Shown in pieces: positions 11,821-64,000 of a stretch of DNA of 64,000 bases. The position numbers and the translations under genes were made by a program. The number at the start of each line of letters is the position of its first letter. The first letter of the stretch is position 1. The stretch covers positions 930,001 through 994,000 of the forward strand of contig NZ_QXTG01000001.1 in the NCBI RefSeq assembly GCF_003581425.1, read 5' to 3'. This DNA comes from Amnibacterium setariae (GTDB lineage: Bacteria; Actinomycetota; Actinomycetes; Actinomycetales; Microbacteriaceae). A model generated the notes under the pieces. It was not told where the DNA came from, did not search any database, and worked only from the letters and a program-made list of their open reading frames with translations.

Positions 11821-11910
11821 CCTCCGATGCTCACCCGGGCCCGCGCTCGCCCCGGGGAATGACCCCGCGCGTCCCCCGAACGAGGGTCACGGATCGAGTG
11901 CCCGTTCGCC

Positions 11911-12054
11911 GGTCGAGGTGCGAGCGCAGCGAGCCTCGCTGGTCCTCCAGGCCGCCACTCATCGCCGTCCCCGCTGGTCGAGGTGCGAGCGCAGCGAGCC
12001 TCGCATCCGCCTTCTCCGCTGGTCGAGGTGCGAGCGAAGCGAGCCTCGAGACCA
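11911..12054. repeat. Three direct copies of a short dispersed repeat, family 1
   Basis: Units starting GGTCGAGGTGCGAGCGCAGC and continuing GAGCCTCG lie at 11911-11938, 11976-12003 and 12021-12054; the third continues to AGACCA. One internal half-palindrome, GCGAGC-GCAGC-GAGCC, allows small hairpins. An inverted copy lies at 13566-13600, on the other side of the HNH gene, and further copies at 63810-63833 and 63926-63958. The remainder of the gap 11821-12168 shows no gene I can support. Confidence 0.85.
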
Positions 12055-12168
12055 CCCTGAAGACCGCTGTCGTCCAATCCGGAATCAGCAGGACACGCCG
12101 TTCCGTTGAGCGGAAAAACCCTGGCAGAAACGGGATGCAGTGTCAGTGCCCCGTGCTCGAATACACGC

Positions 12169-13565: not shown

Positions 13566-13600
13566 TGGTCTCGAGGCTCGCTGCGCTCGCACCTCGACCA
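13566..13600. repeat. Family 1 repeat, inverted copy after the HNH gene
   Basis: GGTCTCGAGGCTCGCTGCGC continuing CTCGCACCTCGACC is the reverse complement of the units at 11911-12054, placed 20 bases after the HNH stop. The HNH gene therefore sits between oppositely oriented repeats. Confidence 0.85.
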
Positions 13601-13609
13601 ACGGGACAC

Positions 13610-31302: not shown

Positions 31303-31324
31303 AGCAGCTCCAGGAGGTGGCGCC

Positions 31325-31424
31325 GATCCGCAGAAACGGACCGACACGCCGCGGAGTCGGGGCGACCCCGCGGCGTGTCGGTCGGGTTCTGCGGATCCGC
31401 GGAGGAAATGCGGATCCGCGGAGG
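31325..31424. repeat. Structured dispersed repeat, family 3, copy 1
   Basis: About 100 bp with outer GATCCGCA/TGCGGATC boxes and a perfect inner stem ACCGACACGCCGCGG / CCGCGGCGTGTCGGT, followed by GGAGGAAATGCGGATCCGCG. It separates the permease gene from the GMC gene. Other copies: 58942-59046 (inverted) and 60018-60117 (same orientation). Confidence 0.88.
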
Positions 31425-31426
31425 TG

Positions 31427-32311
31427 CTAGCGGCCGGCGAGCGACCCGCCGATGCCCCCGACGCTGAAGTAGCGGTTGAGGAACACGAACAGCAGGACGG
31501 GCGGCAGCATCATCACGACCGCGACGGCCATGACGGATCCCCAGTCGGCCGCGTTCTGCTGGAAGAACGTGTTGAGGCCGATCGGCAGGGTGTACTTCGT
31601 GGAGTCCTGCAGGAAGAGCAGCGCGATCAGGTAGTCGTTCCAGGCCAGCAGGAACGAGAAGATCGCGGTGGACAGGATGCCCGGCAGGGAGTTGCGCAGC
31701 ACGATGCGGCGGAAGCCGCCGAACACGCTGGCGCCGTCCATCCACGCCGCCTCCTCGAGGGAGATCGGGATGGAGTCGAAGTAGGCCGCCATCATCCAGA
31801 TCGCGACCGACATCGTCGACCCGATGTAGACGATCGCGACGCCCGGGAGCGTGTTGATCAGCCCGAGCACCGAGAAGGTGATGAACAGCGGGATCGCCGC
31901 CGTCACGACGGGCAGCGCCTGGACGATGAACAGGACCAGCGAGTACCCCGACACCAGCCGGTTCCGGAGCCGCGAGAGCACGTAGCCGGCCGGCGCGGCG
32001 ATCGCCACGGCGACCACCACGGTGACGACCGCGACGAGCAGGCTGTTGCCGAGCCACAGCAGCACGTCGGTGCCGGTGAACACGCGCTCGAAGTTCTCGA
32101 AGGTGAAGCCGGTCTGGGTGCTGCCCTGGCCGGGCTGCACCGAGAGCAGGAACACGACGAAGATCGGCACGATCACGATCGCGGTGATCACGAGGATCAG
32201 CGCGAAGCGCCACCACTGGCCCTTCTGCTCGCGCTCGCGGACCGACCGGCGCTTGACCTGGCCGAGCGTCGCCGAGGTGGCGCCGCCGACCGCGATGGGC
32301 TGTCCGCTCAT
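31427..32311 (-). CDS. Sugar ABC transporter permease (MalG-like)
   Basis: CUT1 permease, 294 residues, six membrane segments, EAA loop EEAAWMDGASVFGGFRRIVL. Its ATG overlaps the stop of the upstream permease (ATGA). The stop codon lies two bases from the family 3 repeat, so the repeat forms the 3' end of the transporter transcript. It belongs with the binding protein at 33363-34688; cargo could be the glycoside oxidised by the GMC enzyme downstream. Confidence 0.93.
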   Translation of the reverse strand: MSGQPIAVGGATSATLGQVKRRSVREREQKGQWWRFALILVITAIVIVPIFVVFLLSVQPGQGSTQTGFTFENFERVFTGTDVLLWLGNSLLVAVVTVVVAVAIAAPAGYVLSRLRNRLVSGYSLVLFIVQALPVVTAAIPLFITFSVLGLINTLPGVAIVYIGSTMSVAIWMMAAYFDSIPISLEEAAWMDGASVFGGFRRIVLRNSLPGILSTAIFSFLLAWNDYLIALLFLQDSTKYTLPIGLNTFFQQNAADWGSVMAVAVVMMLPPVLLFVFLNRYFSVGGIGGSLAGR

Positions 32312-58142: not shown

Positions 58143-58925
58143 ATGACCGACACCGCCGCAGAAGCCGCCTACGCCGTCTACCCGAGCCTCGCCGGCCGGA
58201 CCGCCTTCGTCTCCGGGGGCGCGTCCGGCCTCGGCGCGGAGTTCGTGGAGCAGCTCGCCGCCCAGGGGGCGCGGGTCGGCTTCGTGGACGTCGACGAGGA
58301 GCGGGGGCGCGCGCTCGAGCGGCGGCTCTCGGACGCCGGGCGGACCGTGCGGTTCCTGCCCTGCGACGTGCGGGACGTGCCGGCGCTGCAGGCGGCGATC
58401 CGGGAGGTCGCGGCGGCGCTCGGTCCCGTCCGGGTGCTCGTGAACAACGCCGCGAACGACCACCGCGACAGGGTCGCCGACATGGACGAGGCCCTGTGGG
58501 ACGACCGCATCGCCGTCAACGTGCGGCACCACTTCTTCGCGACGCAGGCGGCGGCGGAAGGCATGCGCGACGCCGGCGGCGGATCGGTGATCAACCTCGG
58601 GTCGATCAGCGCGCACATCGACCTGATGGACCTGCCGGGCTACATCACGGCGAAGGCCGGGGTGGAGGGCCTGACGCGGACGCTCGCCCGCGAGTACGGC
58701 CCCTGGGCGATCCGGGTGAACTGCATCATCCCGGGCTGGATCATGACGGAGAAGCAGCTCACCGAGTGGGTCACGCCCGAGGCGGAGGAGTCGATCGCCC
58801 GGAACCAGTGCCTGCCGCAGAAGCTCTACCCGGACGACGTCGCCCGCATGCTGCTCTGGCTCGCGGCGGACGACTCCCGCTCCTGCACCGCGCAGCGCTG
58901 GATCGTCGACGGCGGCTGGATGTAG
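58143..58925 (+). CDS. Short-chain dehydrogenase, D-xylose/sugar 1-dehydrogenase-like
   Basis: Classical SDR of 260 residues. GGASGLG cofactor turn, VLVNNAAND, the catalytic S154 of LGSISAH and Y167/K171 of YITAKAG are intact. The whole sequence follows the Caulobacter crescentus xylose dehydrogenase closely as I recall it: YPSL-G at the start, NxNDxR-like ANDHRDRVADM, GGGSVINLGSIS, and the C-terminal QCL...DDVARMLLWLAADDSRSCTAQRWIVDGGW. The reaction would be NAD-dependent oxidation of xylose or another pentose to the lactone, the first step of the Weimberg route. It ends the plus-strand operon; a family 3 repeat follows 17 bases later. Confidence 0.88.
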   Translation: MTDTAAEAAYAVYPSLAGRTAFVSGGASGLGAEFVEQLAAQGARVGFVDVDEERGRALERRLSDAGRTVRFLPCDVRDVPALQAAIREVAAALGPVRVLVNNAANDHRDRVADMDEALWDDRIAVNVRHHFFATQAAAEGMRDAGGGSVINLGSISAHIDLMDLPGYITAKAGVEGLTRTLAREYGPWAIRVNCIIPGWIMTEKQLTEWVTPEAEESIARNQCLPQKLYPDDVARMLLWLAADDSRSCTAQRWIVDGGWM

Positions 58926-58941
58926 CCCCGCCCCGGGCTCC

Positions 58942-59046
58942 TTCGCGGATCCGCATTTCCTTCGCGGATCCGCAGTTCCTTCGCGACACGCCGATGCCGT
59001 CGGGTCAGGACGCGGCGTGTCGGCGAGTTCTTGCGGATCCGCGAAG
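58942..59046. repeat. Structured dispersed repeat, family 3, copy 2 (inverted)
   Basis: Reverse orientation relative to the copies at 31325 and 60018, with GATCCGCATTTCC then GATCCGCAGTTCC then CGACACGCCG and its partner CGGCGTGTCG. It overlaps the 3' end of the minus-strand AbiEi-like gene, providing its last dozen codons and stop. Confidence 0.85.
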
Positions 59047-59937
59047 CCAGACCCGGCGGATCGTCTCCACGACCCACTCGGTCTCCCGGACGGCCTGGTT
59101 CTGCGTGAAGCGGAGGGGGTGCTGGCCGAACTGCGCGACGGTCGCGTCCCGCACCCGGTCCCGCTCGACCGCGTCCCGACCGGCGTGCGTCTCCATGCCG
59201 TCGATCTCGACCGGGAGCCAGCCGTCGACCAGGCCGTCCGTCCGGTAGCCACTCGTGAGGCGCGGGTTCGGGACGAAGGGGACCCCCGCGTCCTCGGCGG
59301 CGAGCCGCACCATCGTCTCCCCGGAGGTCTCGGACCGCGGATCGCTGCGGTCGACGGCCGAGCGCAGGTGCTCGGGGAGCAGCGACCGGAGCCGCGACAG
59401 GTCGGAGTCGGGCAGCAGCGGCTCGCGCCGCGCGGGGCATCGCGCGGAGTCGATCGCGGCGACGAGCCACCGCCACTCGACGCAGGCGGCGAGCTGCAGG
59501 ATCGCGTCGACGGGAGAGACGCGCCAGCCCCGGATCGGGTCGGTCCGACGCTCCCAGTGCCATCGGACGTCGGGCTGCGAGGACGCCCACGCCCGGCGGC
59601 TGGCGTCGTCCGAGCGGCGGAGGCGCGTCGTGCCGGGCTCGATCGCGACCTCGAGCCGATGGTCGGGGTGCTCCGGGACCGCGATGCCCCACGACGCGGC
59701 GGCGCTGACGCAGCCGAGGACGCCGCCGACCCGGACCGCCTCCACGCCGGCCGCCGGGGTCGCCGGATCGACGTACCAGCCGATGCGCGGGCGGAGGAGC
59801 ACGCCGAGGTGCCGGAGCCGCGCCACCTCGGTGCGGGCGAGGCCCGCCTCGAGGAACCGCTGCAGGTGGGCGACGCCGTCGTGCGCCGCGAGCACGGCGC
59901 GGGCGGCCCGGAGGAGCGGCGCGAGGTCGGTGGTCAC
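59005..59937 (-). CDS. AbiEi-like antitoxin-domain protein with C-terminal DUF559/Vsr-like nuclease-fold region
   Basis: A protein of 310 residues. Residues 1-90 form a winged-helix-type AbiEi antitoxin domain (LEAGLARTEVARLRHLGVLLRPRIGWYVDP); residues 210-300 (VRLAAEDAGVPFVPNPRL, LVDGWLPVEIDGMETHAGRDAVERDRVRDATVAQFGQHPLRFT) carry the E-x-D-G...D-R-x-R-D pattern of DUF559/Vsr-fold domains. Such proteins are very common in actinobacteria without a linked AbiEii toxin; none is seen here, so a toxin-antitoxin role is uncertain. The last 11 or so residues (GSARTRRHAAS) are encoded inside a dispersed repeat. The gene sits between inverted repeat copies at 58942 and 60018. Confidence 0.82.
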   Translation of the reverse strand: MTTDLAPLLRAARAVLAAHDGVAHLQRFLEAGLARTEVARLRHLGVLLRPRIGWYVDPATPAAGVEAVRVGGVLGCVSAAASWGIAVPEHPDHRLEVAIEPGTTRLRRSDDASRRAWASSQPDVRWHWERRTDPIRGWRVSPVDAILQLAACVEWRWLVAAIDSARCPARREPLLPDSDLSRLRSLLPEHLRSAVDRSDPRSETSGETMVRLAAEDAGVPFVPNPRLTSGYRTDGLVDGWLPVEIDGMETHAGRDAVERDRVRDATVAQFGQHPLRFTQNQAVRETEWVVETIRRVWLRGSARTRRHAAS

Positions 59938-60017
59938 GGCCGAGCAGCATCCGCGGGTCGAGCCCGTCGCGCACCTCCACCGCGTGGGGAGGGAGCGATC
60001 GCGGGCTCGGCGATGAC

Positions 60018-60117
60018 GCGGATCCGCAGAAATCGGCCGACACGCCGTCCCGAGCGGTGCTCGGAGCGGCGTGTCGGCCGAGAACTGCGGATCCGCGGAG
60101 GAAGTGCGGATCCGCGA
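60018..60117. repeat. Structured dispersed repeat, family 3, copy 3
   Basis: GATCCGCAGAAATCGG, then a perfect stem CGGCCGACACGCCG (60034-60047) / CGGCGTGTCGGCCG (60067-60080), then TGCGGATCCGCGGAGGAAG and TGCGGATCCGCG. Same orientation as copy 1 (31325), opposite to copy 2. In the 189-base divergent gap between the AbiEi-like gene and the ALDH 3' end. Confidence 0.88.
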
Positions 60118-60126
60118 ACGTGCGGG

Positions 60127-61578
60127 TCAGGGGTGCTGGACGCCGTCCACGCGCTGCGGGACGCGCCACGGGTTCGCGTCCTGGAGGGGCTCCGGCAGCA
60201 GCGCCTCGGGGAGGTCCTGGTAGGCCACGGGGCGGAGGAAGCGCTCGATCGCCGCGGTGCCGACGCTCGTCGTGCCGACGGCGGTCGTCGCCGGGTAGGG
60301 GCCGCCGTGCTGCTGCGCGTACGTCACCGAGACGCCCGTCGGCCAGCCGCCCCAGAGCACGCGACCCGCGCGCTCGGTCAGCACCTCGAGCAGTGCCGGC
60401 ACGACCTGGTCGTCCGGCTCGCCCTGCACGGTCGCGGTCAGCTGCCCCTCGAGCACCCGAGCGGCAGCGAGGAGCTCCTCGTCGTCCCGGTACTCGACCA
60501 CGAGCGCGGCGGGGCCGAAGACCTCGGCGGTCAGGGGTCGCGGGTCCGCGAGGACCTCGGCGGCGCTCGTGCGCAGCAGCACGGGTGCCGGGTCGTCCGC
60601 CGGGTCGACCGTGCCCTCGAGCACCTCCACGACCTCGTGCGACGCGAGCGTCCTCAGCGCGGACTCGTACCCGGAGCGGATCCGGTCGTTCAGCATCGGC
60701 GCGCCGGCGACCTCGCGGAGGCGCTCGGCGACGAGGCCGGGCACGGGGGAGTCGGCCGGCACGAACAGCAGGCCGGGCTTGGTGCAGAACTGGCCGACGC
60801 CGAGCGACATCGAGCCGGCGAAGCCCGCCGCGATCTCCTCGCCCCGCGCGGCGACGGCCGCCGCCGTCACGAACGCCGGGTTCGTGCTGCCGAGCTCGCC
60901 GTAGAACGGGATCGGCACCTCGCGGCCGCTCGCCAGGTCGAACAGCGCGCGGCCGCCGCGCAGCGAGCCCGTGAAGGCGCCCGCCGCGACCCGCGGGTCC
61001 TGGATGAGGGCGCGGCCGGTCTCCTGGCCCTCCACGACGGCGAAGATCCCGGAGGGGGCGCCCGCGCCCTCGAGGGCCGCGACGAGCACCGCCGCGGTCG
61101 CGCGGGACAGCTCCGGGTGCCCCGGGTGCGCGACGAGCACGACCGGGCAGCCGGCGGCGAGGGCGGAGGCGGTGTCGCCGCCCGCGACCGAGAACGCGAA
61201 CGGGAAGTTGCTCGCGGCCCACACCGCGACGGGGCCGAGCGGCACGAGCACGCGCCGGAGGTCCGGCCGCGGGCCCATGCCCCAGTCGGGGTCGGCGTGG
61301 TCGACCACGGCGTGGAGGTAGGCGCCCGCGTCGACCTCGTCGGCGAAGAGCCGCAGCTGGAACGTGGTCCGCTTCAGCTCGCCGGTGAGGCGCGGCAGCG
61401 GCAGCCGGCTCTCCTGGCGCGCGAGCGGCAGGAGGCGGTCGGCGGCGCCGTCGAGCGCGTCCGCGGCGGCGCGCAGCCAGCCCGCGCGCTCGGCCGGCGG
61501 GCGGCCCTTCAGCACCGCGGCCGCGGCGACGGCGTCGTCGAGCAGGCGGTCGAGCTCGTCCGGGGCGGTGTCGGTCAT
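60127..61578 (-). CDS. Aldehyde dehydrogenase, 2-oxoglutarate semialdehyde dehydrogenase type
   Basis: NAD(P)-dependent aldehyde dehydrogenase of 483 residues. The nucleophile C265 in [11 protein letters not shown] and base E228 in [10 protein letters not shown], with the [23 protein letters not shown] cofactor segment, are characteristic of alpha-ketoglutarate semialdehyde dehydrogenases rather than of general ALDHs. This enzyme would give 2-oxoglutarate in the last step of oxidative pentose or hexarate degradation. Its ATG overlaps the FAH-fold gene by four bases, so both are made together: dehydratase then dehydrogenase, exactly the final two steps. Confidence 0.92.
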
Positions 61579-63909: not shown

Positions 63910-63925
63910 AAGTGTCGTCGTCGGT

Positions 63926-63958
63926 GGTCTCGAGGCGCGCTGCGCTCGCACCTCGACC
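63926..63958. repeat. Family 1 repeat, full copy, with an inverted fragment after it
   Basis: GGTCTCGAGGCGCGCTGCGC continuing CTCGCACCTCGACC. A fragment GAGGTGCGAGCGCAG (63966-63980) in the opposite direction follows eight bases later, so the pair could form a long stem. Confidence 0.8.
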
Positions 63959-64000
63959 GGCGGGGGAGGTGCGAGCGCAGACGGCGTCAGTGGGGTCAGT

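What the first reader, a model, noticed from the sequence alone, without database searches (positions are those of the whole stretch)
58942..60117. AbiEi-like gene framed by inverted family 3 repeats, one supplying its C-terminus
Copies 2 and 3 of the family 3 repeat face each other around the AbiEi-like gene; the stop codon and last codons lie inside copy 2. The arrangement resembles a small transposable unit, with the gene as cargo, or a gene whose end was replaced by a repeat insertion. No transposase is seen.
Basis: partly seen in the sequence, partly recalled or inferred. Interest (0 to 1): 0.5.

Follow-up and report, generated by a model that had tools for sequence, protein, structure and literature searches.

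The report
Nuclease gene with its own repeats
A bacterial DNA-cutting-enzyme gene sits between two copies of a hairpin-forming repeat that is scattered about forty times or more over the same genome, and related bacteria carry other versions of the gene each paired with its own matching repeat, which suggests that gene and repeat work together as a previously undescribed kind of repeat-spreading system.

Summary
In detail: gene 59005-59937(-), in an Amnibacterium genome, lies between inverted ~102-bp palindromic repeats, and its last 12 codons and stop lie inside one of them. The gene is probably not cargo. The repeat occurs at 43 or more sites genome-wide: invariant arms, variable loop, hairpin-forming. 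Homologous genes in the genus and in Naasia are flanked the same way (17 of 18 loci; control genes 2 of 205), each by a different repeat that follows the gene lineage, not the genome (Mantel r 0.78). A second such gene in this genome has its own species-specific repeat (104 half-sites; at most 4 in any other species). Several copies are absent from the orthologous site in A. kyonggiense. At one chromosomal site different species carry different gene-plus-repeat cassettes, swapped near the repeats' outer edges. The protein is predicted to be an AbiEi-like DNA-binding module fused to a Vsr/I-Bth0305I-type nuclease; no Y1 (RAYT) transposase was found in seven species. Best reading: a REPIN/RAYT-like system with an unrelated nuclease as partner. 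The association is shown here; mobilisation by the nuclease is inferred. Outside these two genera the pairing is detectable at only part of the homologues.

The parts
59005..59937 (-). ORF of 310 aa: AbiEi-like N-terminal module plus Vsr/DUF559-type nuclease domain
59344..59937 (-). residues 1-198: winged-helix and AbiEi antitoxin-like fold
   Evidence: 6y8q matched over model residues 7-198, Z 8.0, rmsd 5.3 over 163 residues; Foldseek E 1.9e-4
59032..59328 (-). residues 204-302: Vsr-like / EDxHD homing-endonuclease-like catalytic domain; conserved E207, D234, E244, D246
   Evidence: 3r3p Z 11.6, 3hrl Z 11.6, 1cw0 Z 8.6; profile against 3hrl E 2.6e-9; conservation
59005..59043 (-). last 12 codons and stop of the gene, read inside repeat copy 2
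58942..59043 (-). repeat copy 2: palindromes GCGGATCCGC at 58945, 58964 and 59032-59033; inner stem CGACACGCCG 58984-58993 / CGGCGTGTCG 59013-59022
   Evidence: DNA fold z -5.4
60017..60123 (+). repeat copy 3, inverted relative to copy 2, upstream of the gene
   Evidence: DNA fold of 60017-60118 z -10.3
31321..31427 (+). repeat copy 1, a dispersed copy without such a gene beside it; shared with A. kyonggiense at the orthologous place
   Evidence: DNA fold z -8.2

Best explanation
The unit is one instance of a repeat-nuclease partnership. The gene encodes a protein with an AbiEi-like DNA-reading half and a Vsr/homing-endonuclease-like cutting half. Its cognate target is the 50-110-bp palindromic element that flanks the gene on both sides and is dispersed through the genome as conserved arms around a variable loop. 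Shown here: recurrent inverted flanking, one repeat type per gene lineage, genome-wide multiplication, absence of several copies at orthologous sites in a sister species, and cassette exchange bounded by the repeats. Inferred: the protein binds its own palindrome (as duplex, cruciform or single-stranded hairpin), nicks or cuts it, and repair or transposition copies the element into new gaps at gene ends, so that the repeats depend on the nuclease and carry it along. It works like a REPIN population with its RAYT, but the enzyme is unrelated.
For: Flanking: 17 of 18 loci in Amnibacterium and Naasia score 64-139 against 2 of 205 ordinary genes at 40 or more and none at 64. Specificity: repeat similarity tracks protein similarity over 18 loci (Mantel r 0.78, 0 of 5000 permutations), and paralogues in one genome carry unlike repeats. 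Multiplication: the second gene's repeat gives 104 hits in this genome and 0-4 in six other species, control 0. Insertion: empty orthologous sites for T2 copies L203 and L206 and T3 copy L020; same loop in two copies at different places, L206 and L213. Cassette exchange at site A between flanks 80-81% identical. Co-decline: intact gene in G000 and apparently in G003, remnant in G001, no strict-pattern repeat in the four others. Other genera: the CGGAAAYTCAGGA repeat lies on both sides of a listed gene in G026, G042 and G085 and is clustered round the gene in G042 (13 of 21 sites within 60 kb, 0.8 expected) and G026 (8 of 20; 0.7 expected). Fold: DNA-binding module plus Vsr-type nuclease. No Y1 transposase in 7 of 7 genomes.
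Against: No biochemistry. The variant GCGGATCCGGA is abundant in all 7 genomes, including G000 (45) and G005 (32), in which I found no variant-flanked gene, so pairing is not strict or genes were lost. In the family survey only 13 of 40 loci reach the score of 40 and 15 of 28 of the higher-scoring places; L004 in this very genome has no flanking pair. Shared T3 copies keep near-identical arms while flanks and loops diverge, which could equally mean selection for a host function. No target-site duplication was recognised. Half of the classified repeats sit between convergent genes, as terminators would. Loop covariation beyond the arms is weak.
Confidence: 0.62

Rival explanations
1. The protein is a regulator: the AbiEi-like half binds palindromic operators. 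The flanking copies give autoregulation, the dispersed copies are operators or protein-bound terminators at gene ends, and the copies spread by ordinary recombination, not by the nuclease.
For: AbiEi-like fold; 22 of 42 classified copies lie between convergent genes against 84 of 379 background gene pairs, and only 1 of 42 between divergent genes; arms conserved at shared sites; very stable hairpins.
Against: Most copies lie at 3' ends, not at promoters; a nuclease domain with conserved acidic residues is kept; copies are species-specific and numerous; cassettes are exchanged near repeat edges.
Confidence: 0.2
2. A RAYT or other transposase acting in trans moves the repeats; the DUF559/AbiEi gene is a passenger caught between two copies.
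For: Repeat architecture is REPIN-like, and copies are absent at several orthologous sites.
Against: Y1_Tnp (PF01797) is absent from all 7 genomes of the genus while controls ring; the same gene family is flanked again and again by different repeats. Other transposase families were not searched.
Confidence: 0.07
3. The repeats are ordinary intrinsic terminators or hairpins that accumulated at gene ends, and their facing each other around this gene is coincidence.
For: Convergent placement and hairpin energies.
Against: Exact sequence conservation of arms with 0 control hits; 17 of 18 homologous loci flanked by lineage-specific repeats against 2 of 205 genes.
Confidence: 0.03
4. Repeat and gene form a toxin-antitoxin or anti-phage unit: the AbiEi-like part represses and the nuclease attacks invading DNA; the repeats are only its operators.
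For: Weak PADLOC AbiEi matches, 6 of 11 proteins for the best model.
Against: I saw no partner gene encoded inside the unit; no plasmid in PLSDB encodes a relative of the window protein at E 1e-5; dispersed repeats are not explained.
Confidence: 0.08

Closest known systems
REPIN-RAYT systems (REPtrons) of Pseudomonas, E. coli and others (PMC3116915, PMC8049555, PMC3733652; passages read)
   Same: Short dispersed palindromic elements with invariant ends, variable spacer and hairpin-forming ability in extragenic space; a gene in the genome flanked by the matching element; several gene-repeat pairs per genome; vertical inheritance at orthologous sites.
   Different: The partner gene here is not a Y1/HUH tyrosine transposase (none in 7 genomes) but an AbiEi-like module fused to a Vsr-type nuclease; the GTAG tag of classical REPs is not in the arms of the two families counted here; some families are clustered around the gene.
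EDxHD / Vsr-fold homing endonuclease I-Bth0305I (PDB 3r3p)
   Same: Catalytic domain fold (Z 11.6) and weak sequence relation (E 0.0046).
   Different: The gene is free-standing, not in an intron or intein; the sites linked to it are many dispersed palindromes that flank the gene, not one vacant allele.
AbiEi antitoxins (type IV TA; PDB 6y8q)
   Same: Fold of residues 7-198; Pfam describes AbiEi_4 as a transcriptional regulator.
   Different: Fused to a nuclease domain; no AbiEii-type partner gene noticed in the unit.
CGTC-tagged REPs without a known transposase (PMC3733652, passages read)
   Same: Palindromic repeats for which that paper found no dedicated transposase gene.
   Different: Whether any of those repeats flank DUF559-type genes was not tested.

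Membership tests
REPIN-RAYT (REPtron) | Partner gene encodes a Y1 (HUH) tyrosine transposase | tested here: not met
   PF01797 absent in 7 of 7 genomes with controls positive; the gene's domains are DUF559/Vsr and AbiEi-like
REPIN-RAYT (REPtron) | Dispersed palindromic elements with conserved ends, variable spacer, hairpin-forming | tested here: met
REPIN-RAYT (REPtron) | Partner gene flanked by cognate elements | tested here: met
REPIN-RAYT (REPtron) | Elements mobilised by the partner enzyme | not testable with these tools
   only presence/absence of copies could be shown
DUF559 / Vsr-like nuclease superfamily | Vsr-like fold with conserved acidic residues | tested here: met
   Pfam PF04480 21.5 bits against cut-off 20.6; 3r3p and 3hrl Z 11.6; E207, D234, E244, D246 invariant in 11 sequences
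AbiEi antitoxin family | AbiEi fold and AbiEii partner in an operon | tested here: inconclusive
   fold match Z 8.0 with rmsd 5.3; AbiEi_4 below cut-off; no partner seen between the repeats, wider neighbourhood not searched systematically
MITE / small IS with cargo | Terminal inverted repeats, target-site duplication, transposase in cis or trans | tested here: inconclusive
   inverted flanks present; no TSD recognised by eye in the ten junctions aligned; only Y1 transposases were searched

The most novel reading that the evidence does not exclude
A new class of bacterial selfish or domesticated element: a Vsr/homing-endonuclease-type nuclease fused to an AbiEi-like DNA reader that spreads its own palindromic recognition site as a population of 50-110-bp elements, so that each nuclease lineage has its private repeat, and several such nuclease-repeat pairs live side by side in one genome.
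Probability: 0.45. Interest if true: 0.93.

Novelty: new variant of a known kind. Interest (0 to 1): 0.84.

Why it matters
REP/REPIN repeats were so far tied to one enzyme class, the RAYT transposases. A second, unrelated enzyme class with the same genomic signature would show that repeat-nuclease partnerships arose more than once, would give a partner to repeat families that lack a transposase, and would suggest a role for uncharacterised DUF559/AbiEi proteins. It also gives a simple test bed: paralogous enzymes in one genome, each predicted to read a different, already known DNA sequence.

Tried and rejected
Chance or composition: rejected by the reversed-pattern controls, the shuffles and two sets of control genes (2 of 205 and 0 of 47 at a score of 40 or more; the window gene itself is not in the printed list of best controls and was apparently not picked up by the crude gene caller). 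The 812 control window pairs overlap one another and are not independent. The best control gene, L231:507-1472 (score 58), turned out to be a weak relative by the A2 profile (E 1.2e-7 in a two-sequence search, 3.3e-4 in the six-frame set) with no Pfam nuclease match, so I treat it as a lead only.

RAYT in trans: rejected for PF01797. Known RNA family: nothing near a gathering score in 58800-60250 (sub-threshold miRNA and sRNA matches are hairpin chance). Plasmid-borne relatives: none. Strict coupling of the GCGGATCCGGA variant with a variant-flanked gene: not supported. Strong covariation in the loop: not supported. Outside Microbacteriaceae, 6 of the 118 other genomes gave weak, mostly partial matches; their flanks were not tested.

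Selection and rows left out: the 20 T2 copies fetched were taken from places with at least one exact arm, so arm conservation is overstated; L204 (50 bp) was left out of that table. For empty sites I aligned 10 junctions (7 T2, 3 T3) out of 48 copies compared with 800 kb of G001. T2: L203 and L206 clean empty, L198, L207 and L216 empty with other local change, L205 shared, L217 occupied by a different hairpin with CGACACGCCG. T3: L006 and L017 shared, L020 empty. L199, L201, L202 and L208 also had both flanks but were not aligned. In one search, 6 of 48 copies (4 inside an ORF call, 2 unclassified) were dropped before counting 42. In one search, G026 used 44 of its 50 hits, the rest being unlisted.

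Papers: PMC3116915, PMC8049555, PMC3733652 and PMC3710099 were read as passages only; the others were seen in search listings. The statement that I found no report of this pairing rests only (PMC open-licence library, no bioRxiv collection).

Full report
What is there. The window gene 59005-59937(-) is flanked by two inverted copies of a repeat of about 102 bp. The repeat reads GCGGATCCGCA - 9 nt - CGACACGCCG - 18-20 variable nt - CGGCGTGTCG - 9 nt - TGCGGATCCGC, followed on one side by a further GCGGATCCGC 19 bp on. At least 43 sites exist in the genome. The copies have near-invariant arms and different loops and fold as strong DNA hairpins (three window copies, z -5.4 to -10.3).

The C-terminus. 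The last 12 codons and the stop lie inside copy 2. In the G003 orthologue (74% identical) the frame also runs into the repeat, but in another register; homologues at another site end before or at the repeat. The tail is therefore real but probably incidental.

The gene is repeatedly paired with a repeat. I aligned the flanks of 18 homologous loci in Amnibacterium and Naasia: 17 have inverted matches scoring 64-139, L004 does not. Of 205 ordinary genes of 600-1200 bp in 800 kb of A. kyonggiense and the window, 2 reach 40 and none reaches 64. The repeats differ: GCGGATCCGCA (L001, L095), GCGGATCCGGA (L096, L097, L098, L100), TTCCGGAGTT (L099), CACGGATCAGGA-like (L101, L102, L110, L111), CCGTTTTGAAGGAGTTCT (L002), GCATTTTGAAGGGG (L103), a CCTACAAAACGGAGAGTGC hairpin (L104), CGAGCAGGACG (L003). 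Repeat similarity follows protein similarity (Mantel r 0.78, 0 of 5000 permutations), and paralogues in one genome carry unlike repeats (this table left out L004, which has no flanking match, and L101-type repeats count once per locus).

Genome-wide families. The repeat of the second gene of this genome (L002) has 104 half-sites here, 3 in G001, 4 in G002 and none in four other species, with control 0. Of 20 copies read, 19 of equal length carry 18 different loops; the two copies that share a loop (L206, L213) lie on different contigs with different flanks. For the window's repeat, the strict pattern gives 59 hits in G000 (gene intact), 43 in G003 (gene apparently intact), 29 in G001 (gene reduced to a 67-aa remnant) and 0 in the four other species. 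The seven species are related, so this is not seven independent points. Against a strict pairing, the GCGGATCCGGA variant is common in all seven genomes (13-82 hits).

Insertion and cassette exchange. Flanks of 48 copies were compared with 800 kb of A. kyonggiense, and ten junctions were aligned. Copies L203, L206 and L020 are cleanly absent there, L198, L207 and L216 are absent with further local differences, L205, L006 and L017 are shared with different loops, and L217 faces a different hairpin. At site A, G006 (L096) and G002 (L103) have flanks 80-81% identical up to L096:1278 and again from 2532, while the repeats lie at 1277-1380 and 2413-2518 and gene and repeats inside are of different types. 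The whole unit was thus exchanged near the repeats' outer edges.

Other genera. An A2 profile finds homologues in 61 of 90 Microbacteriaceae genomes. Of 40 lower-ranked places (one of them, L172, in Amnibacterium), 13 have a flank match of 40 or more, against 3 of 812 window pairs and 0 of 47 genes from the same stretches; of 28 top-ranked places (one in Naasia), 15 do. CGGAAAYTCAGGA, seen at flanks in several genera, has hits in 16 of 90 genomes; all 14 genomes with three or more hits carry a homologue (hypergeometric p 0.0025), and in G026, G042 and G085 it lies directly on both sides of a listed gene. In G042 13 of 21 sites, and in G026 8 of 20, lie within 60 kb of that gene (expected 0.8 and 0.7); in G085 2 of 8 do.

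The protein. An AlphaFold2 model (mean pLDDT 85) matches AbiEi antitoxin 6y8q over residues 7-198 and the catalytic domain of homing endonuclease I-Bth0305I, 3hrl and Vsr over 200-302; a profile search agrees for the nuclease part. E207, D234, E244 and D246 are invariant in 11 sequences. That they are catalytic is inferred from the fold, not tested. No Y1 transposase gene was found in the seven genomes.

Placement. Of 42 classified copies, 22 lie between convergent genes (background 84 of 379, p 2e-5) and 1 between divergent genes (83 of 379), judged with a crude gene caller. This fits insertion where it harms least, or a terminator role.

Judgement. The association of each nuclease lineage with its own dispersed palindrome is well supported in Amnibacterium and Naasia and extends to part of the family. 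That the nuclease moves or maintains the repeats is inferred by analogy with REPIN-RAYT systems, whose described features (conserved ends, variable spacer, hairpin, flanked gene; PMC3116915, passages) it shares without sharing the enzyme. The regulator/terminator rival remains open. I found no report of such a pairing in the searches listed under Tried and rejected.

Noticed in passing
window 11907-12056, 13566-13605, 63923-63969: Another dispersed repeat, GGTCGAGGTGCGAGCGCAGCGAGCCTCGAGACC, in five copies in both orientations; similar sequence also lies beside T2 copies L211 and L214.
   Followed up: no
L231:507-1472 (A. kyonggiense): A gene picked out blindly by its inverted flanking repeats is a very distant relative of the nuclease family by profile, which hints that the system reaches beyond DUF559-like genes.
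   Followed up: partly
L096 (G006): The site-A gene of this species has an in-frame TAG yet keeps both flanking repeats.
   Followed up: no
L217 / G001 C1 83473-83601: The same gene junction holds different hairpin families in two species, as if it were a preferred target.
   Followed up: no
   Followed up: no
G000 C1:803460-803576: One copy of the window repeat has three GCGGATCCGC units in tandem 19 bp apart on one side, so the asymmetric tail can expand.
   Followed up: no
L003:1262-1345 (G000): A third flanked homologue in this genome has a CGAGCAGGACG repeat on both sides; its genome-wide number was not counted.
   Followed up: partly
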